From assembly GCF_949628265.1 (NCBI RefSeq), contig NC_088789.1, forward strand, positions 22,623,883 to 22,687,882: a stretch of 64,000 nt of DNA. Direction: 5' to 3'. How positions within the stretch are numbered: the first letter of the stretch is position 1; each line of letters opens with the position of its first letter. A program made the translations under genes and the position numbers. The notes beneath the pieces are model-generated. The model had not been told where the DNA came from, searched no databases, and was given only the letters and a program-made list of their open reading frames with translations. This stretch comes from Cloeon dipterum. Its lineage: Eukaryota > Arthropoda > Insecta > Ephemeroptera > Baetidae. This document shows positions 1 to 49,921 of the stretch, one piece after another.

Positions 1-106
1 AAAAAATATACAGTAAATTAGCATTTGCTGCAACATACACAAGTTGTTTTTATTCCTTTCCTACATCACTCTCATCTATGATTATTGATGTTTTGTCTGG
101 CGTAGG

Positions 107-3100
107 TTAGCCCATCAATTCCTTCATCATTTCCGTCTAAAAATAAAAAATGAAATTACTTAATATCTTTTGGACTCGTTGGGAAAGTATTGTATTGGAA
201 TTCACGTTTAACAGACAGTGAAATTTTTACTTACCATGAATTTTCCGAAAGAGGGAGGTTGTGATGTCTCATTAGGATCATCGTTTTCACACAAAAATCC
301 TGCAACAAAAAATACAGTGAAGTTAATGATTATTTTCAAATTTTGCAGAGGTTTTACTAAAATATTAATTTCAATAACAAGAATTGTTTACAGTTAGTAT
401 TTAACTTGACTTCGAGACCTTTTCATTGTTTTGTAAACTGAAAATATTTAATAACACCACAATATAATTTCTCACCTTCTATAAATATCTCCTTGTACTG
501 TGCCGCCTGAAAAATAGAAAGTAAAATTAAATAATGCAACTTAATAACATAATTTGCTCAAAATGTATTAAATAATGCACTGTAATGCATGAAAATTATA
601 AAAAATTCAGTTAAAAATTCGGCTAATGCTGCTTTAATCAGCAATAAAAATGTTTCATTTACGAAAAAATAAATAAAGTGTATAAAGCAAAGTGAAGCGG
701 ATAGGAAGTGTGCTGGGCTTCCAGCACTACTCTGCTGCTTTTTTCCCCTATGCTGGCCATGTTAAATGCCTTCGCGGGATCGCTCCTCAAAGCGCTCTCG
801 CTGGGCAAAAAAATCTTTCATCGGTGCCAATGGGAAGCCGAAGATTTGAATTTTAACATAATGTCAGAACCAAAAACGAAAAATGAACAAAGATTTTGAG
901 AAAATTAGCGAATACATTTCATTTTTCATTTTTGGTTCTGACATTATGTTAAAATTCAAATCTTCGGTTTTCCATTGGCTCCGATGAAAGATTTTTTTGC
1001 CCAGCGAGAGCGCTTTGAGGAGCGATCCCGCGAGGGCATTTAACATGTCCAGCATAGGGAAAAAAGCAGAGTAGCGCTGCAGCCCAGCACACTTCCTATT
1101 CGCGCCCCTTTTCTTTATAGACTTTATGACAAATGAGACAAAAAAATCATTTTAGTAAACATAAACTTAAAAATTAAATTTTTTACTAAAATTTTAAGAC
1201 TAAATTAACAGCTAAATTCCAAGAATTTAATGATCTTTTGTAGTTTTTCTTACCATTGACTCTAATTGAAAATATATACCCCAACGCGAAGCCACTTTAA
1301 GTGCATTCACAACACCTTCATGTACAGTCAAAAGATCTACATGTCCAGACGATTTGGTACCTGCAACACGAAAAGATTTGTAAGTAAAATTTCACTTGTC
1401 GAATTAAATTAAGTTAGGCCCTTACCATTTTGCGAATTTTCAATGTTTTCATTAAAGAAGCAGTTCAGCATGAAATTCTGTGAATGATAAAATTTTAATT
1501 AAATATGATGCGTTAAGTACAATTTGCATGTGTTTCAAATTCGTTCAAAATTAGGTAAAATAATCATGGACTGCTATTTTGTTTATTTCGCACGCTCATG
1601 TCATTTTAACTATATCTGAAAATTTAGTAAGAGAAGTGGAAGCGTACCGTTATCAATTCAGTAAGATCTAGAAACTGATCCTTGGTCATGGCTTCGAGAT
1701 TGTAATTGTTGATTGTATTTTCTTGCTCTGCGCACGACATATTTGCAGCAATAGGTTCTTGCTTACTCTCGACATCATCCGCAAACGAAAGATCTAAAAT
1801 TAGATAATTGTTAATAAAACAAAATTGTCTAACTATGAACAATAAATATACACATATAACATATTATTTGCATCAATTAAAATTATTTCGACTTTAAATT
1901 TCAACTGCATAGGGACCTAAATCAGTTTAAAATGCATTCTAAAATTTAGATTCCGTGAAGTCCCTTCACTCTGCCCCTTAAAAAAGCCACTCGCTGGAAA
2001 GTTGCAATCCAGCAAATAATAATAATAGTGTGTCGGCCTACTTTCTCAATAATACTCCTAAACCCACAGGGACGACTCGTCAATATGATTGTGCAAGTGG
2101 GTCAACACAGCCCAGAATCTATTGCTTAAATTGTGACTTTGCAAAAATGTATAATGATGTTAAGTCCGGTGTTTTAATTAAATAAAAACGAGAATGCAAA
2201 ACAAAAAATAATACATATCCAAAACATGGGATAAAGTGGAATGTTAAGCTAAAAATAATTGCATTGATGCAACAACTGTTTTTTCTAGACTGCTGGTTCT
2301 CAATTCGTAATTTTAAGTTGACCATAATACTCACTGAGCTGGACTGATATCAAAAATTTTATCGATTAAAAAGTGGCAAAAATAGGAAGTTTTCAAATTT
2401 TGTTATTTTCGCAACTCCAAATCTCGGGTTTTAACCATCAGTGTTACAAAAACTACCCACCGTTGGTCTCGTTTCGACCTCCCCTGACCAGCTGAACCCT
2501 CCACCCATAAGTTATTACTTCAACCCCCATCGAAAAAAATAAAACATATTTAAGCTATGGTTCATTTTTGTATTAAAATTTGCATTTAGTTTAAAATGTT
2601 TTTCTATTTTAGTTTGAGAGAAGATAGACAGATGCAGTTTTTGATACTTTAAAATATTTTTAAGCCCAGAGGAAGCCTGAATAAGTTTTTACCATCAAAA
2701 TTGTAACAATGGGGTTGAAATTGAATGGGGGTATGCACCCGTAAACACTTTATCTACTTAGTGGAGGTCGATGCGAGTTTAACGGTACGTAGTTTTTGCA
2801 ATTCTGATGGTTAGAACCAGAGATTTGGAGTTGCTAAAATAAAGAAATCTGAATAACTCCTTTTTTTAGAAACTGCGAGTTTCGGTTGGCCGGTACAGCG
2901 GCGCACGTGAACCGCGCGGCCCTCCGGGGAATTGTCCGGTGCGTCTGATGGGCCATCCGGGCCTGACTACTCATAATTAACGTGTTGTGATTTAAGACAG
3001 GTTTTCCGCAAAAAAAAGTGACTGTATTTAGACTGATGCAATATTGCATCTGAGCCAATTTAGATTGCTTCAGACGGGGTTTTGGGTTATCATTTAAGCC

Positions 3101-3948
3101 ATTTAATGGTTAAATTAGCAATTTCTCGAATAATTGGTCATTCGTTTTGGTGAAATTTTGATAAAAATGCATTGTAATTGTAGGAGATAATGCACCAAAT
3201 ACACAAACTATAAAACAGTTCAAAAAATAACACGTGTACATTTTTTACTGCCTTCCATGTGGTAAACCGATCAAAAAATTTTTATTTCTTAATTATAAAT
3301 TTTACCAAAAGAAATTATCATGAAATTTCCCGACTTGAAACATGATAATTATCAATTTTTCCTTAGATTTTCTGCCAATTTAGACTGTTTGGGATGAATT
3401 TTTCTATTGTGAGGATTTAACATGGCTTAAAATTGCGCAGTTCATACTCATACCGCAACGATTGGAATTTGAAGCTCAGAAAAAACAGTCTATAATTCAG
3501 AACTCGACCTATTTTATATAATTATATATTGGAAAATAAAAGTATTTCCCCATATATATAATCAAATGAATTAATTGTATGGCATATTTTCTCATTTTTA
3601 GAAAATCTAACACAAAATTGCGACACGTGACGAAAACTTCACATTTACTCTGGGTGAAAAAGCGAATGCGTTCACTGTTGCCTCTTCCTGACTGAGGTTA
3701 ATAATATTTTAAAATATATTTGTTTCTAAAATCCAACTACTTTAAAATTACAAAGCCGCGCAAGATCACCCTGAAGCCCACCCAGATCATTCTAATTTTC
3801 ACACAACTCAATGACTTTAATTTAATTAATGTTTCAATTATACTCTTAAATAAAACTAGAGAATTGTTATAAAAGACTCACCAGTAGGCATGGTTGCTGC
3901 AAGGGTCAGTAAGGACATCGCGAAAAGCAATGCGCAAGATTTCATCAT
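107..3948 (-). CDS. Secreted protein of unknown family, tandem copy 1 (7 exons, 165 aa)
   Basis: I do not recognise the family. Exons on the minus strand are 3948-3882, 1793-1648, 1477-1426, 1360-1254, 506-476, 299-235 and 136-107; all junctions are GT-AG, phases agree, and the sum is 498 nt. The start is the first of two adjacent ATGs (MMKSC...). Residues 1 to about 19 form a clear signal peptide (LLFAMSLLTLAA), so the product should be secreted. The mature chain is acidic and polar, with three cysteines (NMSC, LNC, FLC) and N-x-S/T sites (NMS, NGT, NET). No known domain is visible. An AATAAA poly(A) signal lies at 54-49. Intron 1 (about 2.1 kb) carries older repeats, and intron 4 carries a 439-bp hairpin insertion absent from copy 2. 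The gene model rests on sequence alone, supported by conservation of all seven exons in copy 2. A venom, saliva, seminal or immune role would be a guess. Confidence 0.75.
681..1119. mobile_element. Fold-back (long inverted repeat) element, 439 bp
   Basis: Two arms of about 200 bp (681-890 and about 925-1119) are near-perfect reverse complements around a loop of about 30 bp. The ends read TATAAAG...CTTTATA. The element sits in intron 4 of secreted gene copy 1 and is missing at the matching place in copy 2, so it inserted after the duplication. No transposase is present, so it is non-autonomous. The open frames in its arms are mirror images of each other and not genes. Confidence 0.85.
2403..2842. 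mobile_element. Non-autonomous element R4, about 60-bp terminal inverted repeats
   Basis: The ends begin TTATTTTCGCAACTCC and, reading in from the other side, TTATTTTAGCAACTCC. The two ends stay similar for about 60 bp. It lies in intron 1 of secreted gene copy 1. The same element is in copy 2 (7632-8046), so it predates the duplication. Related but decayed ends occur near 44320-44365 and 46640-47030. Confidence 0.75.
2872..2990. repeat. GC-rich conserved block with palindromic core
   Basis: A GC-rich stretch of about 100 bp in otherwise AT-rich intron 1 begins near GGTTGGCCGGTACAGCGG and ends near GGGCCTGACTACTC. Its centre is close to the palindrome CCGGGGAATTGCCCGG. The block is present again at 8079-8190. 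It resembles the 3' end of a retroelement, but no coding part is present. Confidence 0.55.
3200..3490. repeat. Dispersed repeat R5 in intron 1 of copy 1
   Basis: About 290 bp shared with 8345-8655 (tandem copy) and, more diverged, with 13090-13480 in an OATP A intron. Shared words include AAATTTCCC, CAATTTTTCCTTAG-like and TTAAAATTGCGCAGTT. No coding capacity is visible. The family is unrecognised. Confidence 0.5.
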
Positions 3949-4579
3949 CTTGAGATATAAAATGAAGAGAGATATTTAAAAATCGAAACGCACTGCTCGG
4001 AGGCTAAAAGATGAATGAGAAAGGAATAAGGAAACAGCTCACGGCCTCCAATAGCTCAGGTCAAATGATTCTGGCCAGTGGGGGATGATACACGTGACAT
4101 TTAGGGTTGTTTTGCACCCCTCCACCCAACTGCACAGTTGGACACGCAGGATGTGCATTGTTGTTCAATCATCCAATAGCGTGTAAAATAGGTTTCCGAC
4201 AGGGTGGTCCTGAAAAATAAAATTTCCAGCAGCCCCTTATCCCATACCTTCCAAGAATCTTTTGAAATTCTGCTGACAATGAGTGACTAATTTAAAGCCG
4301 AGTGAACATAACCTGCAGAATGCCTGTCACATATTTTCCTTGTGAATTCACTGTACAATAGCATAACCTGGGTTTGAATGTCTTGCACTAAAAATACAAA
4401 GATACAAAAAATACGAAAACACAAAGGACTTTATTTTTAAAAACACAGCATGTAAGCCATTAATTTTTTTTTATAAAAGAGACTGTTTACCAACTTTTCA
4501 TGAGCCGACAAAAGAAAAAGTTCTTAAAACGGGCCGAAAAAATTTCAACAAATGAGAGCTATATTTAATAGCTCTATAA

Positions 4580-4985
4580 CAACACCGTTGGCTCGCATTT
4601 TTAAGGCATTCTCAGGAGTGTCAAAGCAATGGGAGGTATTTGAGCAGTTGGGAGATCTAATACTGGCTACCCAATGTCAGAGATGGCAAAAAGTGGTTAG
4701 TTTAGTGACTCGAATTGCTCAAATTGCTCAACGGGCTGGGAGGCGCACCGGCGCCGACTAGCTACTTGCTGGTTTGCACCTTTCCAGCATGCGTGATTTG
4801 GCTTCACGGGACGAATGTCTAGCGTTTCAATGCAGTCCTCGGTGCGGAGGCAAGTGGCCCTTGAGTGCATGGGCTGGGTCCCTGTGGGGCCTGGGGCGCC
4901 CATTCAATCCGTTCGCGGTGTTCAGCATTCGTGCTAGTGCAGTGTGCGCCCTTCCCGGTCCTCGGACAGGGATTAAAAAAATATA
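4580..4985 (+). mobile_element. SINE-like insertion, about 405 bp
   Basis: Copy 2 of the duplication reads TAGCTCTATAAATGGAGT at about 9738-9755. Copy 1 reads the same sequence interrupted by this block, so the empty site defines the insertion exactly. The block ends in an A-rich tail (GGATTAAAAAAATATA). Its 3' body (about 4757-4975) is shared, in the opposite orientation, with the 5S-like SINE at 24006-24306. Its 5' part is not clearly 5S-like and may be another promoter head. Open frames here are not genes. Confidence 0.8.
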
Positions 4986-5654
4986 AATGGAGTAAAGAAT
5001 TTTATGTTGATCAAAAAATTAAAATGATGCAGCCAAATTCAAATTATATTTATTTTGCCTAGATTCATATGACTAGGGCTGTGCATTTTAGACGATTTCT
5101 AAGAGGAAATTAGTCGGTTTTTGTCAATTTAGACGGTTTTATTTTTCATTCATTGTTTCCTTCGCGTTTTTTTATATATTTCATAAAAATTCATGTTTAA
5201 CTGATGTTTTATATTGTACTTTTCAGAGGCAATTTTAGAGATAAATGGATTGACGATTAATTGAAAAGGATAATCACTGGAAGTTTTTAGTTAAATCGAG
5301 CCGTTTCAATAGAAAATCATTCAGAGTGAACAGAACCTGCAGAATGCCTGTCACAATAGATGCGATTACGTTGCATTTTTATTACTTTTCGGCTAATGAT
5401 GAAATTTGATACAGCCAGTCAGAGGGAAAGCAGTGTGTTTGTCATTGAGATTCAAACAGTAATTCACGAAACTGACTGTGAAATTTAAGGAGTATCAACA
5501 ATGCTTCTTAGTTTAGAATAGGGGAGACGCATTTCAAAGACAAAATGAACTAGGTTAAAACGTTAAAAAATATACAGTAAAGTAGTCTCTGCTGCAACGC
5601 AAATAAGTTGTTTTTATTCCTTTCTTACATCACTTCTTCCGTGATTATTGATGT

Positions 5655-8600
5655 TTAGTCTGACGTAAAGAAGTTCGTCACGGCCGTCCACATTTCCGTC
5701 ACATTTTCCACCTAAAAATAAAAAATGGAATTACTTTAATATCTTTTGCACTCGTTGGGAAAGTATTGTATTGGATTTCACGTTTAACAGACAGTGAAAT
5801 TTTTACTTACCACCTTTACCACGAAATTTCCGAAAGAGCCAGGTTGTGATGTCTTATTAGTTAACGTAGGAGCATAATTTTTAGGTCCATCATAGAATTC
5901 TGCAATAAAAAAATAGAGTGAAATTGATGTCTTTTTTTCAAATTTTACAGGGGCTTTATTAAAATATTAATTTCAATAACAAAAATTAATTTACAGTTGT
6001 TAGTATTTAATTTGACTTCGACACCTTTTCATTGTTTTGTAAATTAAAAATATTTAATAACACCACAACATGTTTTTTCTCACCTTCTAAGAACTCCTCG
6101 AACTCTGCCTGAAAAATAGAAGTAAAATTACATAATGAAACGCACGTTGTAACTTAATAACATAATTTGCTCAAAATTTGTTAAATAATGCACTGTAATG
6201 CATGAAAATTATAAAAAAAAAATTCAGTTCAAAAATAGGCTGACGCTATGCTTATTCGGTAATAAAAATGATTTATTTACGAAAAAATGAATTAAAAATA
6301 CGATCGTGAAATCTCTACTGCATTACGCATTCTGATATAAAAAAATGTTTCAAAAGTATGTCATATGAGAAAAAATCATTTTAGCTAACGTTTTAACGTT
6401 AACTTTAAAAAAATATTTTTTACTAAAATATTAAGACTAGATTAAGAGTTAAATTTCAAGAATTGAATGATCTTTTGAAGTTTTTCTTACCAATGTCTCT
6501 ATTTGAAAAAATAAACCCAAATACGAAGCCAATATAATCTCATCCAAATCTTGTTCTGTTCTAGACCGTTCGGTATCTGCAACACGAAAAAATTTGTAAG
6601 TAAAATTTCACTTGTTGAATTAAATTAAGTTAGGCCCTTACTTTCTTGCAAATTTTCACTGTCATCATCAGAGTGGCATTTCTTATTGAAATTCTGTGAA
6701 TGATAAAATTTTAATTAATTCAATATGTTGTGTCACGTACAATACGCATATGTGTTTCAAATTCATTCAAATTTAGGTAAAATAATCATGGACTGCTACT
6801 TTGTTTATTTCGCACGCTCATGTCATTTTAACTATATCTGAAAATTCAGTAAAAGAAGTGGAAGCGTACCGCTATGAATTCAGTAAGATCTACAAACACT
6901 TCCCCGTTCTTGGCTTTGAGACTGTACTTGTCGATTGTATTTGAAAGCTCTGCGCACGACATATTTGCAGCAATAGCATCTTGCAAATTCTTCAACAAAT
7001 CCGCAAGCGGAATATCTGAAATAAGATAAGAGTTAATAAAACAAAATTATCTAACTAAACACAATAAATAATTACACATATAACATAAAAGTTGCATAAA
7101 TTAAGATTAGATAAAAAAATATTTTGACTTTAAATCAGCTTAAAATGCATTCTAAAATTTAGATTCCGTGAGATCACTTCACCCTGCCCCTTAAAATAGT
7201 CACTTGCTGGAAAGGTGCAATCCAGCAAATAAAAATAATAATAGTGAGTTGACACACTTTCTCAATAATACTCATAAATCCACAAGGACGACTCGTCAAA
7301 ATGATATGCAAGTGGGTCAAACAACCCAGAATCAATCAAATTGTGACTTCGCAAAAATGTATAATGACGTTAAGTCCGGTGTTTTAATTAAATAAAAACG
7401 GACATGCAAAACAAAAAAATAATACATATCCAAAACACGGGATAAAGCGGAATGTTAAGCTAAAAATAATTGCATTGATGCAACTGTTTTTTCTAGATTC
7501 TGGTACTGCTGGTCCTCAATTCATAATTTTAAGTTAATGGTCACTTATAGTTGTCCATAATACTCACTGAGCCGGACTGGTATCGAATATTTTACCGATT
7601 AAATCGCAAAATAGGAAGTTTTCAAATTTTGTTATTTTCGCAACTCCAAATCTCGGGTTTTAACCATCAGTGTTACAAAAACTACCCACCATTGGACTCG
7701 TTTCGACCTCCCCTGACCAGCTGAACCCTCCACCCATAAGTTATTACTTCAACCCCCATCGAAAAAAGTAAAACATGTTTAAGCTATGGATCATTTTTGT
7801 ATTAAAATTTGAATTTAGTTTAAAAATGTTTTTCTGTTTTAGTTAGAGAGAAGATAGACAGAAGCAGTTTTTGGTAATTTAAAATATTTTTAAGCCCAGA
7901 GGAAGCATGAATAAATTTCATCTATCAAAATCTTATCAATGGGGTTGAAATTGAATGGGGGTATGCACCCCCTAAAGTGGAGGTCGAGGCGAGGTAATTT
8001 TAGCAATTCTGATGTTTAGAACCTAAGATTTGGAGTTGCTAAAATAAATAAATTTGAATAACTCCTTTTTTTAGAAACTGCGAGTTTTGGTTGGCCGGTA
8101 TAGCGGCGCACGTGGACCGCGCGGCCCACCGGGGAATTGCCCGGTGCGTCCGATGGGCCATCTGGGCCTGACTACTCATAATTAACGTGTTGTGATTTTA
8201 GAAAGATTTCCCGCAAAAAATTGACTGTATTGAGACTGATGCTTGGTGAAACAAAACTGTATCTGAGCCGATGTAGATTGCTTTAGATTCAAAGTGATTT
8301 TATTGCGGATCAGCAGAGCAAATAACTATGCTCCGCACCTTCCCACATTCAGAACACAGTAGATAAAAATGCAAAACTATAAAATAGTTCAAAAAATAAC
8401 ATGTTTTACTGCCTCCCTTGTGGAAAACCTATCAAAAATATTATTTCTTAATAATAAGTTTTACAAAAAAAAACAATCTCTAGAAAAATTTCCCGACTTG
8501 GAACATAATTATGAATTTTTCATTAGATATTCTAACAATTTAGACTGTTTGGGACGAATTTTCCCATTGTGAGGATTTAATATGGCTTAAAATTGCGCAG

Positions 8601-9126
8601 TTCATACTCATACCGCTACGATTGGAATTTGAAGCTCAGGAAAAACAGTCTACAACTTAGAACTCGACCTCTTTTATAAAATTAAATATAGGAAAATATA
8701 TGTTTTCCCCCATATATATTTATAATCAAATGAATTAATTTTATGGCATGTTTTCTCATTTTTAGAAATTTTTACATAAAATTGCGACAAATTGCGTGAC
8801 AAATTGACCTCGCGTTCCCTTAGAAAAAAAAAACGAATTGCTCCTTCCTGACTGAGATCAATAATAGTTTAAAATAAGTTTGTTTCTAAAACCCAAATAC
8901 TTTACAACATATAATAATTACAAAGCCGCGCAAGATCACCCTGAAGCCCATCCAGATCATTCTAATTGTCACACAACTCAATAACTTTAAGTTAATTATG
9001 TTTCAATTATACTCTTAAATTTAACTAGAGAATTGTTATAAAGGACACACCTTTCTCACCAGTAGGCATGGTTGCTGCAAGGGTCAGTAAGGACATCGCG
9101 AAGAGCAAAACGCAAGATTTCATCAT
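5655..9126 (-). CDS. Secreted protein of unknown family, tandem copy 2 (7 exons, 173 aa)
   Basis: This is a paralogue of the gene at 107-3948 with the same exon order and phases: 9126-9060, 7015-6870, 6693-6642, 6576-6491, 6108-6084, 5899-5811 and 5711-5655, 522 nt in total. The signal peptide differs from copy 1 at one residue (A6V). The mature part is only about half identical in exon 2 and less elsewhere. Exon 4 is 7 codons shorter and exon 6 is 8 codons longer than in copy 1. Only the first two mature cysteines are kept (NMSC and KKC), so they may pair. Exon 6 ends with two in-frame donors 9 nt apart, which could give products differing by V-K-V. The last exon encodes a longer C-terminus than in copy 1. 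An AATAAA lies at 5618-5613. Function is unknown; secretion is inferred from the signal peptide. Confidence 0.75.
7632..8046. mobile_element. Non-autonomous element R4, duplicated copy
   Basis: Orthologous to the element at 2403-2842 within the tandem duplication, with the same terminal repeats and a slightly shorter interior. Confidence 0.75.
8079..8190. repeat. GC-rich conserved block with palindromic core, copy 2
   Basis: This is the duplicated counterpart of 2872-2990 in secreted gene copy 2. Here the core reads exactly CCGGGGAATTGCCCGG and can form a short hairpin. Confidence 0.55.
8345..8655. repeat. Dispersed repeat R5 in intron 1 of copy 2
   Basis: Counterpart of 3200-3490 inside the second duplicated unit. 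An open frame across it is a chance frame. Confidence 0.5.
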
Positions 9127-10065
9127 CTTGAGATATAAATTGAAGAGAGATATTCAAAAATCGAAACGCGCTGCTCGGAGGCTAAAAGATGAATGAGAAA
9201 AGAATGCGGAAATATCTCACAAACCTCCCCTATAAGCTCAGGTCAAATGCTTCTGTCCGGTGGGGAATGATTCACATGACATATAGGGTTGTTTTGCCTC
9301 CCTCTGCCACCCAAATGTTCAATTGGACACGCAGGATGTGCATTGTTATTCAATCATCAAATAGCGTGTGAAATAGGTTTCCGACAGGGTGGTCCTGAAA
9401 AACATTTTTTCCGGCAACTCCTGATCCTATATACCTTCGAAGAATCTTTTGGAATTTCTGGAATTTTAAGCCGAGTGAACAAAACCTGCAGAATGCCAGT
9501 CACATATTTTTATTGTGAATTTACCTACAAACATTTTGAACAATAGCAATAGCATAACCTTGGGTTTGAATGTCTTGCACTATAAACACAAAGATGATCA
9601 CACAAAAGACTTTATTTAAAAAAATCAAGTAAGCTATTAATTTTGATAAGAGAGACAGTTTTCCAACTTTTCATGTGCCGACAAAAGAATATTAAGCTCT
9701 TAAAACGGGCCAAACAAATTTGAACAAATGAGAACCAAATTTGATAGCTCTATAAATGGAGTAAAAAAATATATGTTGGTCAAAAAATTAAAATGATGCA
9801 GCCAAATTAAAATTATAATTATTTGCCTAGATTCTTATGACAATTTATGATGAAAAGATTACTAGACACATTTTTATCCGAACTGATTGAGCGTTATACC
9901 ACATTATTAAAGCGATGTTTCACCACTAATTCCGCATTCAAACTTATAATTGGTATATCGGAGTGTACGATTGTTTGCTTGAATACTTGAATAGTTACTT
10001 TGCTTTAAAAATCGTTTGAACAACAACTCCAATATTTATCCTATTTAAAACTTATGGCAAGCTTG
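9127..10065. other. Intergenic region between secreted copy 2 and Gemin7
   Basis: Bases 9127 to about 9840 belong to the duplicated unit and are the upstream flank of secreted copy 2. Shared words with copy 1 include GTTTCCGACAGGGTGGTCCT and AACCTGCAGAATGCC. Bases 9840-10065 are AT-rich single-copy sequence in which I see nothing further. Confidence 0.6.
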
Positions 10066-10126
10066 TTTCGCGCCAAAAATCAAATAAGCCGGCTCGAAAG
10101 TGGGTTTGTGTTTGTTATTGTCAGAC
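10066..10126 (+). promoter_or_regulatory. Putative Gemin7 core promoter with E2F-type site
   Basis: A perfect E2F consensus TTTCGCGCC lies at 10066-10074, 62 bp before the Gemin7 ATG. A TCAGAC initiator-like word follows at 10121-10126, just before the ATG at 10136. No TATA box is visible. This fits a housekeeping, cell-cycle-linked gene. Function is inferred from motifs only. Confidence 0.45.
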
Positions 10127-10135
10127 GGACGCAGC

Positions 10136-10922
10136 ATGGAAACGGAGGCGCCAAAAGAAGACAATTCTGAAGCAATTCAGAAGCTTCGCACTGAGATGAG
10201 GGAAAGATTCCTTCGAATAATGACTGCACTCGTTGGTAAGAATAAATTAAAACCATTTAATCTTTTTAATCGGCTCGAAATATAAATTGTATAATGTTAA
10301 ATTATCAAACAAAACTACCAGTGTGGTGCTGTCGCTAACGCGTTAAATGCCAGAACTACTACACCCCTATGACATTTAAAATTTCCGTCGGCAGAGGGCA
10401 GAACTTGTTCGAAACAAGCATTAGAACGCGATGAGATAATGTAGTGCAGTAGTGTGTTGCAGGTTGCATCAATTTCCGTTTAAGCAGTAATTCACATTCA
10501 TTTTAAATAATTTCTTTTTGTAAAATGATTAAATTGTCATAATTATTTTATGTTTTTCATAGGAAATTACCATCTATAAGATTTAATTGGATTTAATAAT
10601 TAAAATTAATCATAAATACCAGTGGGGATTTATTTCCAGCTTTATTTTTAAATTAACAAAAATTTTGAATATATAATTTAAATTTCCAATTTCTCCTTCC
10701 ATATAAAATAAAAAACACTGTTTTTGTGTTGTAGGTCAAAAGTGTGAATTCACAATGCTGGAGAAAACGGTGGTGCGTGCGGAGCTGAAGGGTTGTGACC
10801 GAGATGTGCAAAACTTTTGCGTGTCCAATTTGCAAACGGCGCTCGGCGTGCTTCCGCAGGCCATCCTCCGCTCTGAAGACATAATCAGCGTGCAATTGCT
10901 CGACTTTCCCGCTGACAAATGA
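10136..10922 (+). CDS. Gemin7: Gemin7, SMN-complex component (2 exons, 95 aa)
   Basis: Exon 1 is 10136-10235 and exon 2 is 10735-10922, joined in phase 1 across a 499-nt GT-AG intron. The product has a short acidic N-terminus, the helix LRTEMRERFLRIMTALVG, and an Sm-like fold segment ending in LRSEDIISVQLLDF. This matches the metazoan Gemin7 pattern (arginine-rich RERFLR helix, then a V-x-A-x-x-x-G/A-x-D strand, NF-x-V-S-x-LQT, and LR-x-x-DII near the end). At 95 aa it is shorter than vertebrate Gemin7 (about 130 aa), mostly at the N-terminus. Gemin7 pairs with Gemin6 as an Sm-like dimer and helps the SMN complex load Sm proteins onto spliceosomal snRNAs in the cytoplasm. An upstream in-frame ATG at 10100 exists; 10136 was preferred because it follows the initiator-like word. 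The gene converges on OATP A. Confidence 0.9.
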
Positions 10923-10944
10923 AAGGGCAGCGAGTATTTGAGAA

Positions 10945-10963
10945 AATAAACTGACTATTTATT
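10945..10963. terminator. Facing poly(A) signals of Gemin7 and OATP A
   Basis: AATAAA for Gemin7 is at 10945-10950 on the plus strand. AATAAA for OATP A is at 10963-10958 on the minus strand, only 7 nt away. The stop codons (10922 and 11053) are 130 nt apart. Cleavage 10-30 nt past each signal would make the two 3' UTRs overlap. Confidence 0.7.
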
Positions 10964-11052
10964 GTGCCAACCTGAGATCCTCGCGTTTCAAATGCTTCAC
11001 CGCATTTTACTCATAAACGATAAAAACAAAGTGTAACAAAAAAGGTTGAGTG

Positions 11053-14000
11053 CTATGCCTTTCGGTGAATTTGTCTCTTGTGCTGCGGCTGCTCCTCTTC
11101 CTCTTCTCCGTATAAATCCAGATCTCTCCCCATGTAACACACCACCACGTCGAGCACCACAGCTATGCTCGTTATTGCTGTTGAAACAGAAATTGTTATG
11201 AAATTGTTTGCATTACAATATTTCCAAAATTATCTCTTTGTAAATATGTAAAAATAAATAATAATTCCTAGTTGAATCAGAAATATTTTACCTGCTGCGC
11301 CGACGTTCATGTAATATCTGTAGAAGGACCTTTGATAAAGGGCGCAGTTGCCCTTCTTGCCGCACGACTGGTCCCAAATCAAACAGGAAGCGTCTATCAA
11401 ACGAGAATTCAGACTTCTTTGTCACGTGAATAATCACTCGTTATTTACCAATTAGAGCTCCGAATATAATCGGCCCTGGGATAAATGCAAAAAGGCTGAT
11501 CACCACCAACGCCAGACCTTGTGCGAACGCCTTGTCTATGGGATCTACGCATCTGAAGTGGCAAATTTAGATTGGGACAAAATAAAACATACCGTCTGTT
11601 ACAACATATTATACATACATTAAAGTGGAATGATACTGGGCAACAATTGAAAATTATCTAAATTGTTGGATGCCTTAAACAATTGACCGATAAACAATTT
11701 GTTCAACAATTTGCAATAGTAAAAAAATGACCTTCCTACAGTAAAAATTCAAATTTTGCCAATTTTCTCCAAAATTTACAGTGCTTGAACATATTTTCTT
11801 GGCATATTCCGATTCCTCTCGTCGAGATCTGTCCAACGGTGTATGCCACTTATTGGGGAAACTCTTGGTTTTGAAATTAAATCGGATATCAAGTAAAGAG
11901 ACAGCCATTACCATTTGAAAAGCACGGTAACTTTCCAGTTGATTTTCTCAAAAAATTAAAGTGCTCCTTAGGTCAATTTAGGCTTTAACTGAATCCTAAG
12001 GGATGAGTTTATGCATTGGCAACAAGCATTTTCCAGGCTTTTCCAGTATCATTCCTCTTTAAGCTCAATCCTGAGTTAAAATGAGAATCAAATCAGGGTA
12101 ACGATATGAAAAAGAGTGTTATTCAGTAAAGGGAAGAAGCCAATAATTCACAATTATTTTTTAATCAAATCATAAATTTAGTAAATTATTAAAGCATACT
12201 ACTTGGATGTAAAATTTTTACTTTAACATATAAAACAAAAAATTTTTCCTAACAATTAATAAGAGTAAATTAAAAATTAAACTGCGAAATATTTTGGTTC
12301 TTACCTGAAATTGACTAGAATATTTCCGACCTTGCCTGAACTTCCGATCATGTGCATGATGTAGGTTCCAATGAGGAACCAAAGGAACATGTTGGGGCAC
12401 TCGGGAATGCACGTTCCTTCGGTTGCCAGCAAATCGCCGAAACTTTCAGAATCTGTAAACTGCTTTAAAAAACTGGACGCGGCGCACGAGCATTGGGAAA
12501 AGGTCTGAAAATCACGAGGGTTTAATAAAAATCCCATAAAAAACTAAAATCTGAGTGTCAACTCACAACATTCCGATTTGTTCCCTCTGGCCCCTCGAAT
12601 ATATTTTGGCAGCCAGCATGGCAGGCTGAGAAAAAGGTGGTTTCGTTTATGCAAATCGGCGAGAAATGCAGGTTGTCGGGGCAGCTGCACGCCGCGTTGC
12701 ACTCGGAAGTCAGATTGAACGGCCTGAAATGCGACGAGAGGTTAATATTATCCACCACCCAGATTAATTTTGTTTTTGTTTACTCACTCGCCAAATGTAT
12801 TGAAGCCTTGGACTAAGACGTCCGGGCAGCCGATAAAAATGAATGAAATTTCTGCTAAAATGTACGTGAGACCGGTAACCACGTTCCAGCCGAGGACGTA
12901 TTTAGCCCTTGGCTGGAATTTTGAAATGACGTATCCGGACACGAGGAAGCCGAGGGTCATCGCGAGCAGCCCAGATGTGCCTTGAAACAAAATTGAGATA
13001 AAGATAGGATTAATCGAGCTGTATTGTAAAGTATTAGCAAAATGACTGAGCCAAATGTTTTTCTATTGGTCAATGAAGCTTTGAAATTTAGATATTTTTT
13101 ATAAATAAATGTACACGTGTGTTTTGATGAAAATGGCACATTCGAAAAAATTTAAGTTTCAATCTAAATTGCCATTTTGAAATGCACAAGCTAAAATGTT
13201 TTTCAACCATCACGGGAACAAAATTTGTTGACTAGAATACCGATCAAAATTCTATACTAAATAGATCATGAGAAAAATTTCCCAACGCAAAACAATAATT
13301 ATGCACTTTTCCTTGGACTTAATGCTTATAAAATGGCTTTGGTCGATTTTTAGACACCTCTAGAAAGTATATGCAGTTTTAGACCGTTTCAGGTGTGGTT
13401 TAAATTTCTTAAAATTGCATTATTCTTGCTCATTTGATTGGCTAAAACCTCAGAAAAAAAATCAATCGTCTTGATTTCACATCCCCTATGGTCAGAAATA
13501 AAATAATTAAAGTATTATATAAGAGAATAACAATTAAATAATTTAGAATTATTTCAATACTTCCCTCATAGAGCATATTTTAAAGCTGAATTAATTTCCA
13601 ACATATCTTGAGCCATTATTTGTAAATTAAATTCATTAACATGTGGAATTATAACCAAAAATATTTTTAACTGTTAAAGAGGCTGACGTACCTGCAAGTA
13701 TTCCGGCGTTGGCAGCCGTTTTGTTGTACTGCACTTCCATGTACTTGGTGACATAGGTGATGTAACCCGAAGCCCCAAGAATGTAAAAAGTGGAAGACGC
13801 AATGTTTGTCATCAGCAGCTTGTTGCTTAAAATCCGCTTCAGAGCCCTCGGGAATTCTGCGCAGTTAGCAAACGACTGTCAAAAATCAAAATAAAACAAG
13901 AAAGTTGTCGCATCACCTTTGAAACCTGGTTTCTCGGGCTCTCGCTGTGTCAGCAGGGGCGCCTGCAGCTTGCTGCCCTTCTTGCTCGCCTTGGGCGGCA

Positions 14001-20149: not shown

Positions 20150-23100
20150 TTAGATTTCCCTAACAAAGGACACTTGATTATGTTCATCACGTGAGAATCC
20201 ATTTTCACGGGACTCGTTCTGTTCGACTTGGGAGTTTCTAGTGTCAGCGGCAAATTCTTCAAGTTCGGCGGAGCCGTCACTGTCAGTCAACGCATGTCCA
20301 AGTACTTCGTTTCTATTTTGATCCCCGTCGACTGATTTGTCATCTTCTTCCTCGTCATCAAAAATTTTCACATCCTCCACGTTGCAAAACACGAAGAAGT
20401 CGAAGATGAGTTGCAACATCAGAAATACTACAAAAAGATCAAATTAATATTTAAAATTGTAAGACATAAGAAAGCTCTTCTACCTATCACCAAACTGTAA
20501 AAGCTATATCTCATGTCCTCGGTGTGGTGGAGCCAGCAATTTCCAAGTCCTGAGCATGTCTTCTCCCACATGATGCATGTTCCGTCTGTAAAAAATTATG
20601 GTCAAATTAACAGCCACGACTGAAACTATCGCTACTAACCGATTAATTTGCCAAAGGCATAAGGTGCTAGGGTCATCGGTAGGATGTGTATAAGCGCTAT
20701 CACCAAGCTGAGGGCCATTTCCTTGTCTCGCGCTTTAACGCATCTGCAAAATTAACACACGCATTTCTGAATTTCTGGAAGCTTTCATGTGCAGATTAAT
20801 TAAGTAATTACCAAACGTTTCTTTACATTCTAAATATATTATCCATGCTGACTTAATTAAAATGGAGCTCAAAATAAAAACTGTACCTCAGTATAGTCAA
20901 CGTTTGGCCGGTCCTGGAAGAACTGGTCACAAATGCAATAGCAGCTGTGAGCCATAAGTTCAGCATCCACTTGTCCTCACAGTCTGGTCGGCACAATCCT
21001 GGAGAAACTGTGTGTTCGAGTTCAATCTCAGCCGAGGGTTGAGTTACTAGATTGAAGCACTGCGTGTACTCCTGAAGCAAAAAAGGTTTATTGCGATGCC
21101 AAAAGGCTATAAGTATTAGGTCCCTCAGGTGGTACAAAATCTAGAACTACAGAAACGTGAAATTAAAACCAAATATATCCAATTTTTAGTATCCAGAGGG
21201 AAAACATCCCCCTATTTTAACAATTGCAGCACGTTTAGCAATTCCAAAGATCACTTGAAAATTTATTGCAATAAAATTGATCTCACCTTGATCTTTTCTC
21301 CTTCAGTCACGAAATCTCGGCAGCCGGCGTGGCAGGCCGAAACGAAACTGGTTTGGTTAGCCTCGTGGCACACCGGAGAAAATTTCACGAAGTCGCAATT
21401 ACATTCAGCGAGGTATGGATTTCGTCTGTCGACGCCAAACAGCCATGATTAAAAAACCAGTCTGCAGCAGGCAACGCTGCTACGCTTCGCAGGTTGCATA
21501 TTTATTTTTTTTATGCTTACGAGTGTGAATCGATCTTCTGCATCTGCAAGTCTGTTTGATGGCAGCCCAGAGAGGGATAGACGGAAGAAGCAACCAAGGA
21601 AAACGCAGTCGCCATCATGCCCCAGAGAGCAACAAAGCGGGCGCTAGGCTTGAATGTGGACATTACTAGCCCGGAAAGTATAACGCTAATCATTGAGGGT
21701 AGACTTGTCGAAATCACTGTAATTACAAATTAGACCGGATTAAGATCCGATTTGACTTTGAAATTTTTAAGAAAGAACAACGCGTTGTAAAAATTTCTTA
21801 CTATAGTAAAAACCGGCATTTTCAGCAGGGATCCTGTACTGAGCTTCATAATTTTTTACCATGTACGACGCAGGAACTAGAATTCCGCTCACATACAAGA
21901 CCATGGATAGCATGCTATACAAGGCGGCTTTGTTGGAGAGTAATCGTTTGAGAGTTTTCCAAAAGTCTGAAAGAAAAATATTGTTCGAGTTACTCAATCA
22001 GCAATGAAGGAAACCAATATTGAAATCAATACACCAGTTGTATATTAGCCATTAGTGTTTGAAGCCATCAACAGATAGCGCCACCGTATACTTTCATAAT
22101 AAATTTAATTTTAAGGCACTTCCGCTGCGATTTAAGACTCAATCCTGCCACTGTGCATTCTTCACTTAATATTTTTTCTTTTGACGTGCTGAAAACCAAA
22201 TTCGGTTGAGCCAAAATCGCCGTGCAGTTTTGAAAAAAAAATTTTGAAATAAAAAATCTTTTCCAACGTTTCTGCGACAAATGGCTTGACTGATTTTGTT
22301 TTCCAGAACGTTAAAAGAAAAAATATTGAGTGAAGGATGTACAGCGTCAGGATTGAGTCTGAAATCGTAGCGGAAGTGCCTTAAAACTAAATTTAATATG
22401 AAAGTACACGGTGGCGCCATCTGTTGGCGGCTTTGAACACTGATGGCTTATGCAACTGGTGAATTTACAGCAAAGAAAACTCGCAACTCTCTCAGAGTTG
22501 AACCATCAAGGATATAGAGGTTGAAAGAAAATAATTAAAAATGTCAAAGTGCAGTTGGCTGGAGTTTTAGGATTTTTTTTGTGCACAGCAATGCTTACCC
22601 TTAAGGTTTCTTTCCTCTGACGCTTCGGCCGTATCTCTGCTCTCAACTAAGACATTCTGTTGTCGTCCGGCCATGGTGGGCAAAGTCTCTGGGAACATGG
22701 AGATTAGCACGGCGACGAAAAGCAAGGAGAAGCCAAGAATAAGCCATCCCATCCACCAGGCACCGATCCACCGCGAGTCCGAAGGGGTGATGATTGGCGT
22801 TAGTTCTAGGCTGACGAACGTGCTTAAGCAGAATTTGGTGATAATGCCTCCAAGCATTGGTGCGGCTGGTCTCACAGCGTTAGTGATTGCTACAAAATAA
22901 TGGGTTAAACGCTTTTCAAATTGAGACACATCATATCATTTACCGAGTAATATTGGCAACGTGGCTTTTTCGCAATTGTCGTCCAAATACGAGTTGCCTA
23001 GGGTGTAGAGAGAAAAGCTGCCAAGCCCATTGATAAACTGTGCGAGGAAAAAGACATGCAATGGTGTGATCCAGCCACCGGAATCTTGCGAGTCTGAACT

Positions 23101-24800
23101 GCATTCCGCTCCTAGCAAACTGTCGTTCAACCCAGGACGACAAAGCGTGTTACTCTTCAGCGACGCTGGAATGACGAATTTTAAGCAAAATGCAAAAATA
23201 ATTAATAAAAAAAAATGATAAAATTTGTATTGAGACAAAAATATTTAGCTTACTTTGCATGTTGTTAGAGTTAGAGATAGATGAGTTGAAATGCTCCTCG
23301 GTGAGACTCTCCGCGTCTTGGCCAGGCCCCCAGATGTAAGCCGGCAGAAAATTGACGAAACAGTGAATGGCCACAATTAAAGTTCCTATGCCAATCCATC
23401 GAGGCCGGTGTCGATTGCTTATGTAGTACGTACCAAAGATAGCGCAAAACGATGCCACCACGTCATTAAACCCCGTTATAGCTCCTGAAATTTTAAAAAT
23501 AACTTTGCCAAATCTGCCACAAAAAAATAATATATATTTTTAAAAAATGTATAACGTTACGAAATTTTCGAATGGCTTTGAATTTCAGAAATTCTGAGAG
23601 CAAAATAATATCTAGATCGTGGGTCATTACATTAATTCTTTCATAATTTCTCTGGCTGTTTACCCTTTAGTTAACCAGCGCAGAGCTTCAGAGCCATTCG
23701 ACAATTTAAATTTCATTTTCAAGTTATGTTATTTAAAATAAAATCTAAACGATGTAATTTCCTTTTGGAATTCAATTAAGTGGTAAGAAAAGGCAAAAGA
23801 AAATGTTTAGATTGAGTGCCACGGCGAGTACAAAGCGTGCCTCAGATTGCTGTGGTTATTGTCTGTTTGTTTTTGTAAGTGCAATGTGTACATTTTTCTT
23901 ATGACGATAGGAAAAATTCATAGATCTGGGATAATGGGTCAAAACAAAGTGAATTTATTTAATTTTTGACAAGATGAATTTATGCAAAAATTTACCGAAA
24001 CTTGTTCTTTTTTTTTGCTTTTTTATCCCTGTCCTCGGAGCGGGAAGAGCGCACACTGCACTAGCACGAATGCTCTGAAACCCGGGTCCCAATTTCACCG
24101 CGAACGGATAACATGGGCGCACCAGGCCCACTGAAGGGCCACTTGCCTCCGCACCGAGGACTTTTAGAAACGCTAGGCATTCGTCCCGTGATGTTAAATC
24201 CCGCATTCTGGGAAGGTGCAAACCAGCAAGTCTAGAGAAATGCAGCCGGCATGCAGGCGGTCACCCATCCACCTACTGAATGCACGCAATGTTGCTTAAC
24301 GAGAACATTATTGAGATTCATTTATCCAACATGTGACACCCTAGACCTTTTCCTCTATTGATTTTCTTGTACCTTTCGGCCTCTATCTGGATCTATTAAA
24401 TATTTAAATTGAAATTTCCCTTTTATTCAACCGGTCAATTTATAAAAACGTTTATCAGCACTCACATTATTTAGATTATTGGCTTCGAACAAACAGTTTG
24501 TTTCGTCTGTACCTTTAAAAAAGGTATCTGCGCGAGACAAGTTATTTTTCTATGTGTTCTAGCAAATATTATATATTGATTAAGATGGTAAATACCTATG
24601 ACTCCGCTCGAAATTTTGTACCTCTTCTCTATGGTCGTGTTGATTGAATGTGGGTAGCTGAAAGCGGCATCCGAAAACACGATGAGTAGCAAGTATACGC
24701 ACATGAACGCGGTAATGTTGGCGAATTTTTTGGTGAGCCATCTGGACGTAAAACACGGTCCCAATCCGCAGAGCGTGTTCTTTCCCTCTGTTAGCAGCAT
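20150..24800 (-). CDS. Oatp: Organic anion transporting polypeptide B (11 coding exons, 705 aa)
   Basis: Exons are 24800-24596, 23484-23254, 23165-22944, 22889-22599, 21966-21802, 21716-21521, 21425-21287, 21071-20887, 20743-20640, 20585-20484 and 20427-20150, 2118 nt with phases agreeing throughout. The ATG at 24800 is the only in-frame ATG in the first coding exon. The protein has the OATP plan: GLGPCF then SRWLTKKF at the N-terminus, the signature DSRWIGAWWMGW at about residues 257-268, a Kazal-like loop from about residue 445 (ECNCDF ... SACHAGC), and WEKTCSGLGNCW near the end. The C-terminal tail after about residue 630 is long and acidic (DDEEEDD). Exon sizes 231, 222, 165, 196, 104 and 102 equal those of gene C, showing recent common origin. 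Intron 4 holds a fold-back element. Substrates are unknown. Confidence 0.95.
22031..22463. mobile_element. Fold-back element R2 in OATP B intron 4
   Basis: Two arms of about 185 bp are inverted repeats (ends near CACCAGTTG...CAACTGGTG; inner words AGATGGCGCCACC and TAAGGCACTTCCGCT). There is no coding capacity. Relatives are at 35430-36394 (three in a row) and 43308-43737. Confidence 0.85.
24006..24306 (-). mobile_element. SINE with 5S rRNA-like head
   Basis: On the minus strand, GTTAAGCAACATTG (24300-24287) followed by GGATGGGTGACCGCCTG (24270-24254) matches the 3' half of 5S rRNA, including the internal promoter box C region. A body of about 200 bp follows, shared with the insertion at 4580-4985, and the element ends in an A-rich tail at about 24025-24006. 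This is the layout of the SINE3 class (5S-derived, RNA polymerase III). It lies in OATP B intron 1. The 5' end of the 5S part is truncated or diverged, so it is not a functional 5S gene. Confidence 0.8.
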
Positions 24801-47044: not shown

Positions 47045-47478
47045 AGTGGAATGATACTGGGCAACAATTGAAAATTATTTGAATTGTTGGATGCCATAAA
47101 CAATTGATCGATTAACAATTTGTTCAACAATTTGCAATAATAAAAAAGGACCTTCCTACAATAAAAATTCAAATTTTGCCAATTTTCTCCAAAATTTACA
47201 GTGCTTGAACATATTTTCTTGGCATATTCCGATTCCTCTCGTTGAGATCTGTCCAACGGTGTATGACACTTATTGGGGAAAGTCTTGGTTTCGAAATTAA
47301 ATCGGATTTCAAATAAGGAGACAGCCATTACCATTTGAACAGCACGGTAACTTTCCAGCCAATTTTCTCAAAAAATTACAGTGCTTCTTAGGTCAATTAA
47401 GGCTTTAACTGAATCTTAAGGGGCGAGGTTATGCATTGGCAACAAGCATTTTCCAGGCTTTTGCAGTATCATTCCTCT
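47045..47478 (+). mobile_element. MITE R1, TTAA-flanked
   Basis: 434 bp between TTAA at 47041-47044 and 47479-47482. Same ends and orientation as 11624-12058, with a closely similar interior. No transposase. Confidence 0.85.
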
Positions 47479-47589
47479 TTAAACTGACAACTTCCAATAT
47501 AAACAGCTTCTAATAATGAAAGATTTATTTCAAGGTTGGAAGCAAACTGTGGGAGATCACTCATAATTATTTGAAAATAAATACCACGC

Positions 47590-49119: not shown

Positions 49120-49450
49120 ATATTGCAAAGCCCCGGAAAATCCGTGTTCTCAAAAAATTGCACGGTAAATTCTTAAAAAAGTGGCTGCAAAGTTAGCAAT
49201 CAAAAGATGAGGACGGAAAAATTAGTTTATTTCAAAACTTGTATAGAGATTCTCCAAAAAGTGCCAGACTCCGTTGGATAGATATCGGCCATAATAATCA
49301 AAATTTGCCTCTAAAATTTGGTCAAGTGATTTAAATGTTGGCAAAAATTGACAAAAATTTCAATTTTAACTGTATGTTTAACTAGGCATGTACTTTTCTG
49401 ATTTTTGCACATTGAAGAACATTTTTTTTTAAATCAACTTCTCATTGTTG
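49120..49450. repeat. Decayed R1 element
   Basis: A degraded relative of the R1 MITE in the orientation of 49497-49921 (GGAAAATCCGTG, GATGAGGAC, CTCCGTTGGATAGA, AAAATTTG words in the same order). Ends are lost. Confidence 0.5.
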
Positions 49451-49496
49451 CCAACAATTCTAAGAATTTTAGTGGCCCTGCATCGATCCACTTTAA

Positions 49497-49921
49497 AGAG
49501 GAATGATACTGCAAAAGCCTGGAAAATGCTTGTTGCCAATGCATAAACTCATCCCTTAGGATTCAGTTAAAGCCTAAATTGACCTAAGGAGCGCTGTATT
49601 TTTTTTGAGAAAATTGGCTGGAAAGTTACCGTGCCTTTCAAATGGTAATGGTTGTCTCCTTACTTGAAATCCGATTTAATTTCAAAACCAAGAGTTTCCC
49701 CAATAACTGGCATACTCCGTTGGACGAGAGGGATTGGAATATGCCAAGAAAATATGTTCAAGCACTGTAAATTTTGGAGAAAATGGGCAAAATTTGAATT
49801 TTTACAGTAGGAAGGTCCTTTTTTATTATTGCAAATTGTTGAACAAATTGTTTATCGATCCATTGTTTATGGCATCAAACAATTCAAATAATTTTCAATT
49901 GTTGCCCTGTATCATTCCACT
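49497..49921 (-). mobile_element. MITE R1, inverted copy
   Basis: Reverse orientation relative to 11624-12058. TTAA precedes it at 49493-49496; the other flank reads TTAT, one mutation from TTAA. A TIR is visible at each end. The open frame inside is chance. Confidence 0.8.

What the first reader, a model, noticed from the sequence alone, without database searches (positions are those of the whole stretch)
107..9126. Tandem secreted genes whose exons diverge faster than their introns
Seen directly: in exon 2, 24 of 49 codons differ between the copies and all 24 change the amino acid; in exon 3, 11 of 17 codons differ and all 11 are replacements. By contrast intron 3 differs at 2 of 65 bases and other introns are visibly close to identical, while the signal peptide differs at one residue. 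Neutral sequence conserved more than mature coding sequence is the pattern of strong positive selection after duplication, as known for venom, seminal-fluid, gamete-recognition and immune effectors. The family is not one I recognise. It could be an undescribed arms-race protein.
Basis: partly seen in the sequence, partly recalled or inferred. Interest (0 to 1): 0.9.

Follow-up and report, generated by a model that had tools for sequence, protein, structure and literature searches.

The report
Fast-changing secreted mayfly gene pair
Two neighbouring copies of a small secreted-protein gene, very probably from a mayfly, have changed their protein-coding parts several times faster than the non-coding DNA around them, a known sign of strong selection for change, in a protein family for which no described relatives were found.

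Summary
Two 7-exon minus-strand genes (A, 165 aa; B, 173 aa) share all splice sites and intron phases. Exon 2 differs at 24 of 49 codons and exon 3 at 11 of 17, none synonymous-only. Mature exons differ at 116 of 406 aligned bases; introns at 234 of 2,492 with badly aligned blocks masked, 404 of 2,844 unmasked. dN/dS is 10.3 (exons 2+3) and 4.2 (exons 2-7); ML tests of omega=1 give p=6e-5 and 5e-6. I found a third copy 2.6 Mb away with the same pattern and one database relative, a hypothetical protein of the mayfly Cloeon dipterum, apparently at the same locus. Relaxed constraint and exon-targeted mutation fit poorly. The same pattern was published in 2010 for Hessian fly salivary genes (PMC2955719), so the phenomenon is known; the protein family seems undescribed. 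Silent-site counts are small, non-coding divergence is uneven (3-14%), and one neighbouring transporter also changes fast. Tissue, fold and function are unknown; an arms-race role is inference. Verdict: a real, strong case of diversifying selection, a new member of a known kind.

The parts
107..3948 (-). Gene A: 7 exons 3948-3882, 1793-1648, 1477-1426, 1360-1254, 506-476, 299-235, 136-107 (stop included); 165 aa
   Evidence: open CDS across GT-AG introns; aligned to B
5655..9126 (-). Gene B: 7 exons 9126-9060, 7015-6870, 6693-6642, 6576-6491, 6108-6084, 5899-5811, 5711-5655 (stop included); 173 aa
   Evidence: open CDS across GT-AG introns
3882..3948 (-). A exon 1, putative signal peptide (judged by eye)
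   Evidence: 21 of 22 residues identical to B
9060..9126 (-). B exon 1, putative signal peptide (judged by eye)
1648..1793 (-). A exon 2, fast-changing, carries invariant Cys43
   Evidence: 24 of 49 codons differ from B, 0 synonymous-only; Cys
6870..7015 (-). B exon 2, fast-changing
1426..1477 (-). A exon 3, fast-changing, carries invariant Cys77
   Evidence: 11 of 17 codons differ from B, 0 synonymous-only
6642..6693 (-). B exon 3, fast-changing
1361..1425 (-). A intron 3, 2 of 65 bases differ from B
6577..6641 (-). B intron 3
5361..5564 (.). 3' intergenic flank of B, 3.0% diverged (6/203) from the DNA left of the window that flanks A
673..1127 (.). fold-back insertion in intron 4 of A, absent from B
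   Evidence: inverted repeats I1 and I6; alignment

Best explanation
A and B are working paralogues of a small, taxonomically restricted secreted protein: signal peptide, then an acidic mature chain of about 145-153 aa (calculated pI about 4.2) with two invariant cysteines that probably form one disulfide, and 3 N-glycosylation sequons each. The signal-peptide exon and much of the non-coding DNA stayed similar, while the mature chain is under diversifying selection, most simply because it binds a partner that itself changes. Duplication lets each copy go its own way; B has moved furthest from the Cloeon dipterum relative. SHOWN here: gene structure, excess of replacement changes, low silent and non-coding change, third copy, divergent relative apparently at the same locus. 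INFERRED: secretion, disulfide, binding role. My guess at the arena (no data): reproduction (seminal or egg-associated) about 35%, immunity or parasite interaction about 30%, saliva/gut/food about 15%, other 20%.
For: All six introns GT-AG in both copies, phases 1,0,1,0,1,0 in both. Exon length differences 0,0,0,21,6,24,27 nt, all multiples of three, against 6 of 41 intron gap runs. dN/dS A-B 10.3 (exons 2+3) and 4.2 (exons 2-7), ML p=6e-5 and 5e-6; A-C 2.4 (p=0.018), B-C 3.5 (p=0.007) on exons 2+3. Exons against masked introns: A-B p=5e-23; A-C p=3e-12, B-C p=1e-12. Third copy C with open 5-exon CDS, C4:25208362-25206764. Annotated relative P0001 in Cloeon dipterum, E=1e-38. A-P0001 mature identity 95 of 136 sites against 430/446 and 367/378 in chosen in-exon segments of two neighbouring transporters. 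Polarised on P0001, exons 2-3: 23 B-only, 9 A-only, 3 P0001-only differences of 67 sites. Cys43 and Cys77 invariant in 4 of 4.
Against: Silent counts are small (1.25 of 36.8 sites in exons 2+3), and the ML omega for that set ran to its bound (148), so the size of omega is not known. Non-coding divergence is heterogeneous (3-14%, p=7e-5), so no single neutral rate fits. A-C and B-C silent divergence in exons 2+3 (0.17, 0.13) exceeds that of introns 2, 3 and 6 (3-6%), hinting that some non-coding similarity may come from homogenisation. The middle neighbouring transporter (OATP-2) is only 68-93% identical per segment to its Cloeon dipterum relative, so fast change is not unique to A and B here. 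Exon 1 is not significantly slower than intron 1 (p=0.20).
Confidence: 0.8

Rival explanations
1. Relaxed constraint or pseudogenes: exons simply drift.
For: A ends at a stop codon after which the frame continues into sequence matching the tail of P0001, and B shows a similar lost tail, so parts of the coding sequence do decay.
Against: Drift makes exons diverge like introns; they diverge about three times more (116/406 against 234/2492; twice more against unmasked introns, 404/2844). Three copies keep open frames and multiple-of-three exon length changes. Omega=1 is rejected in 3 of 3 pairs.
Confidence: 0.04
2. A mutational or conversion process that strikes exons (segment switching as proposed for snake toxins, or import of exon pieces from other family members) without selection on the protein.
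For: Some differences are clustered: mature-exon runs of 4-5 adjacent differences occur 6 times among 70 runs, against 11 runs of 4 or more among 267 in introns.
Against: Such a process should also bring silent changes: 11.2 expected, 1.25 seen, 0 of 3,000 simulations as low. 45 of 70 exon runs are single bases. No other donor copy was found in the genome by 3 protein and 4 DNA searches of the gene parts.
Confidence: 0.06
3. The exons are not unusually fast; the non-coding DNA is held back by gene conversion (concerted homogenisation, as proposed for the Hessian fly genes) or constraint.
For: Introns 2, 3, 6 and the 3' flank are at 3-6% while intron 1, introns 4-5 and the 5' flank are at 9-14%. 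For the pairs with C, silent divergence (0.13-0.17) exceeds introns 2, 3, 6. PMC2955719 proposes homogenisation in the same pattern.
Against: It cannot explain the replacement/silent imbalance inside the exons themselves. Introns 2, 3 and 6 are equally similar between A/B and the copy 2.6 Mb away. Exons also exceed the fastest non-coding segments. It may act together with selection.
Confidence: 0.07
4. Assembly artefact: A and B are two haplotypes laid end to end.
For: Adjacent, head-to-tail copies of about 5 kb; only one annotated relative was found for Cloeon dipterum.
Against: Divergence of 3-14% with an A-only insertion and many indels, plus a third copy elsewhere. Even as haplotypes the exon excess would stand.
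Confidence: 0.03

Closest known systems
Hessian fly small secreted salivary gland protein (SSSGP) genes (PMC2955719; abstract and sections 5, 6, 7 read)
   Same: Clustered genes for small secreted proteins; conserved promoter, UTR, signal-peptide and intron sequence with diversified mature region; published pairwise dN/dS 1.1-18.8, here 2.4-10.3 (exons 2+3).
   Different: No sequence match found to anything but a Cloeon protein; 7 exons where most SSSGP groups have one intron; 3 copies found; by inference a mayfly, not a plant parasite.
Aphid bicycle genes (PMC9168663; abstract and passages read)
   Same: Fast-changing secreted proteins built from small exons; one invariant Cys...Tyr...Cys series here (C43, Y53, C77).
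   Different: [quoted passage not shown] here intron phases alternate 1 and 0. No sequence match.
Snake venom toxin genes with accelerated exons / ASSET (PMC2711939, abstract read; slower introns than exons in venom phospholipase genes is recalled)
   Same: Duplicated secreted-protein genes whose coding exons change unusually fast.
   Different: No sequence match; here mostly single-base replacement differences.
Cloeon dipterum hypothetical protein P0001 (177 aa)
   Same: Only homologue found; same signal peptide, cysteines and order of segments; apparently the same locus (shared contig length with neighbouring transporter P0008).
   Different: In exons 2-3 A is 51/67 and B 37/67 identical to it; it has a C-terminal tail that A and B lack.

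Membership tests
Hessian fly SSSGP-type pattern (works like) | Non-coding DNA and signal-peptide exon conserved, mature coding region diversified | tested here: met
   but non-coding conservation is uneven
Hessian fly SSSGP-type pattern (works like) | dN/dS above 1 between members | tested here: met
   3 of 3 pairs
Hessian fly SSSGP-type pattern (works like) | Salivary gland expression | not testable with these tools
   no expression data reachable
Hessian fly SSSGP (by descent) | Detectable sequence homology | tested here: not met
   B alone and a 4-sequence profile each returned only P0001; sensitivity limited to relatives sharing 5-residue words; not compared directly with SSSGP sequences
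Aphid bicycle genes | Internal exons nearly all phase 2 | tested here: not met
   intron phases 1,0,1,0,1,0 against passages
Aphid bicycle genes | CYC motif(s) | tested here: inconclusive
   C43, Y53, C77 invariant in 4 of 4; published spacing not read
Known Pfam domain families | Match above curated cut-off | tested here: not met
   0 of 4 proteins; best sub-threshold E-values 0.06-0.19
Proteins of solved structure | Sequence match in the PDB | tested here: not met
   0 at E<=10 for B and for the profile
Secreted proteins | N-terminal signal peptide | tested here: inconclusive
   clear hydrophobic N-terminus by eye; no predictor was run

The most novel reading that the evidence does not exclude
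A Cloeon-restricted family of secreted proteins in a non-parasitic, early-branching winged insect that is in a reproductive or immune arms race, with selection driving the mature chain while parts of the non-coding DNA are homogenised among copies, even between loci 2.6 Mb apart.
Probability: 0.3. Interest if true: 0.65.

Novelty: new member of a known kind. Interest (0 to 1): 0.5.

Why it matters
Introns that change less than exons are rare and mark genes where protein change itself is favoured. The best published insect case I read concerns plant-parasitic gall midges. A case in what is very probably a mayfly, whose adults (recalled) do not feed, points to another arena such as reproduction or immunity, and gives a defined set of three paralogues plus one relative on which that can be tested. 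A second use is technical: such families are missed by homology searches and show up by conserved introns instead.

Tried and rejected
Internal exon repetition: alternating intron phases suggested repeated exon pairs, but similarity around the three phase-0 junctions was no better than chance (p=0.40 for A, 0.89 for B). Known RNA families: 0 in window 1-12000. Pfam, PDB sequence: nothing. More copies: 3 protein searches and 4 DNA searches of gene parts of the window's genome met only the A, B and C loci; the tool scores only the best candidates. The 10 kb left of the window holds no further copy, only the end of A's repeat unit. Species by COX1: only a weak match below the cut-off. Literature: searches for fast-evolving or positively selected mayfly genes (listings seen, no paper opened except passages of PMC7250882) showed nothing on this family.

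A global alignment of intron 1 with copy C (243/704, 241/724 differences) was set aside because C lacks most of that intron; anchored, masked ends were used instead. In the transporter yardstick I used six of ten segments of OATP-1 and four of nine of OATP-3; the dropped ones (62-94% range: 61/74, 48/57, 35/41, 34/40; 65/71, 59/63, 29/37, 15/17, 19/24) seem to run into introns or model errors. With them kept the figures are 608/658 and 554/590, still far above 95/136.
Full report
What is there. The window lies at G000:C4:22623883-22687882 of an unnamed 190 Mb genome in 10 contigs. Two head-to-tail repeat units of about 5 kb each hold one gene on the minus strand. Gene A has exons 3948-3882, 1793-1648, 1477-1426, 1360-1254, 506-476, 299-235 and 136-107 and reads 165 aa; gene B has exons 9126-9060, 7015-6870, 6693-6642, 6576-6491, 6108-6084, 5899-5811 and 5711-5655 and reads 173 aa. 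All introns are GT-AG and the intron phases are 1,0,1,0,1,0 in both. Exon lengths differ by 0,0,0,21,6,24 and 27 nt, all multiples of three; of 41 intron gap runs 6 are. In the free nucleotide alignment 5 of 6 exon gap runs are multiples of three. An alternative donor in B's exon 6 would remove three residues; this does not affect exons 2 and 3.

The observation. Exon 2: 24 of 49 codons differ, none synonymous-only. Exon 3: 11 of 17, none synonymous-only. Exons 4, 5, 6, 7: 20 of 29, 5 of 8, 8 of 19 and 7 of 9 aligned codons differ, with 0, 1, 1 and 0 synonymous-only. Exon 1: 2 of 22, 1 synonymous-only. Mature exons differ at 116 of 406 aligned bases in the whole-unit alignment or 107 of 403 when aligned exon by exon. 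Introns differ at 234 of 2,492 after masking 353 bases in blocks below 65% identity, or 404 of 2,844 unmasked. The exon excess over masked introns has p=5e-23.

How far non-coding DNA diverges. It is uneven: 3' intergenic flank 6/203, intron 6 3/98, intron 3 2/65, intron 2 11/170, intron 1 163/1726, intron 4 30/257, intron 5 25/176, 5' flank 27/193; heterogeneity p=7e-5. Exons 2+3 (48/198) exceed each of these eight; the weakest contrasts are p=0.010 and 0.007. dN of exons 2+3 (0.357) divided by non-coding divergence is between 2.3 and 11.8. The 3' UTR, which in the relative P0001 is coding, differs at 12 of 90 bases.

Selection. Nei-Gojobori dN/dS for A-B is 10.3 (exons 2+3; 1.25 silent differences on 36.8 sites) and 4.2 (exons 2-7; 6.6 on 76.2). 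My pairwise ML codon model rejects omega=1 with p=6e-5 and 5e-6; for exons 2+3 the estimate ran to its bound, so its size means little. Simulated placement of the 47 differences with the intron spectrum gave 11.2 silent changes on average; 0 of 3,000 runs reached the observed 1.25. Substitution types are alike in exons and introns: 77 of 116 and 258 of 371 differences are between A/T and G/C, so biased conversion is not evident.

Third copy. DNA and protein searches of the genome met one further copy, C, at C4:25208362-25206764 on the same strand, 2.6 Mb away. It has five exons and an open reading frame of 172 aa; its fourth exon begins like exon 4 and ends like exon 6, so a deletion joined them in frame. 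A-C and B-C repeat the pattern: dN/dS 2.4 (p=0.018) and 3.5 (p=0.007); exons 2+3 57/198 and 60/198 against masked introns 75/852 and 87/908, p=3e-12 and 1e-12. The three copies are about equally far apart in non-coding DNA. Against a simple reading, silent divergence with C (0.17, 0.13) is above that of introns 2, 3 and 6 (3-6%), which may mean homogenisation of those introns or only small numbers.

Relative in another genome. Among about 5.8 billion proteins only P0001, 'Hypothetical predicted protein [Cloeon dipterum]', matched, with B alone at E<=1 and with the four-sequence profile (which contains P0001) at E<=10. Its contig is 35,368 bases long, the same length as that of P0008, a fused prediction of the two transporters that lie beside A and B in the window; I infer the same locus. 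The window's transporters are closest to Cloeon dipterum (93% over 84% for P0002; the next named species about 51%), so the organism is very probably a Cloeon mayfly, and 3-4% protein difference in conserved transporter exons suggests that it is not the same species as the deposited one. Both points are inference. A and P0001 agree at 95 of 136 mature sites; chosen in-exon segments of OATP-1 and OATP-3 agree at 430/446 and 367/378 (with all segments kept 608/658 and 554/590). OATP-2 is itself fast: 577 of 727 over its 12 segments, 68-93% each. In exons 2-3, taking P0001 as reference, 23 sites changed in B only, 9 in A only, 3 in P0001 only, 4 have three states and 28 are the same, of 67. After A's stop codon the frame continues into sequence like P0001's tail; B's tail is also lost.

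What the protein looks like. Mature chains have calculated pI 4.1-4.6, two invariant cysteines (C43 and C77 in P0001 numbering) and 2-3 N-glycosylation sequons each. No Pfam, PDB or protein match explains them. No signal-peptide predictor was run.

Explanation. The best-supported account is diversifying selection on the mature part of a secreted protein, with the signal peptide and regulatory surroundings kept. Which partner drives it is unknown; my split of odds among reproduction, immunity and feeding rests on what is generally known of fast-evolving insect secreted proteins, not on data here.

What is known. Chen and colleagues (PMC2955719; abstract and sections 5, 6 and 7 read) described the same pattern in Hessian fly salivary genes, with dN/dS of 1.1-18.8 between pairs, and proposed positive selection plus concerted homogenisation. 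The present case works like that, but no sequence relationship was found. Aphid bicycle genes (PMC9168663; abstract and passages) share small exons but have phase-2 internal exons, which is not met. Snake toxin exons (PMC2711939; abstract) are a further parallel. Three paper searches touching mayflies, selection or Cloeon listed no work on this family.

Noticed in passing
11233-33152, minus strand: Three tandem genes of the organic anion transporter (OATP, SLCO 74D-like) family lie right of the pair.
   Followed up: partly
20174-24800, minus strand: The middle transporter gene (OATP-2) is only 68-93% identical per segment to its Cloeon dipterum counterpart P0008, while chosen segments of the other two are 96-97%. 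Why one of three is fast is unexplained.
   Followed up: no
673-1127: A fold-back (inverted repeat) insertion sits in intron 4 of A and is absent from B.
   Followed up: no
2380-2600 and 7608-7832: Intron 1 of both copies holds a repeat with at least 64 matches across the genome, often as close inverted pairs.
   Followed up: partly
L015 (C4:25206764-25208362): The third copy has exon 4 and exon 6 joined in frame by a deletion, so the alternating intron phases let the gene lose exons without breaking the frame.
   Followed up: partly
11731-12081, 47100-47510, 49432-49851: Related repeat copies, 70-97% identical in translated pieces, lie in both orientations; not identified.
   Followed up: no
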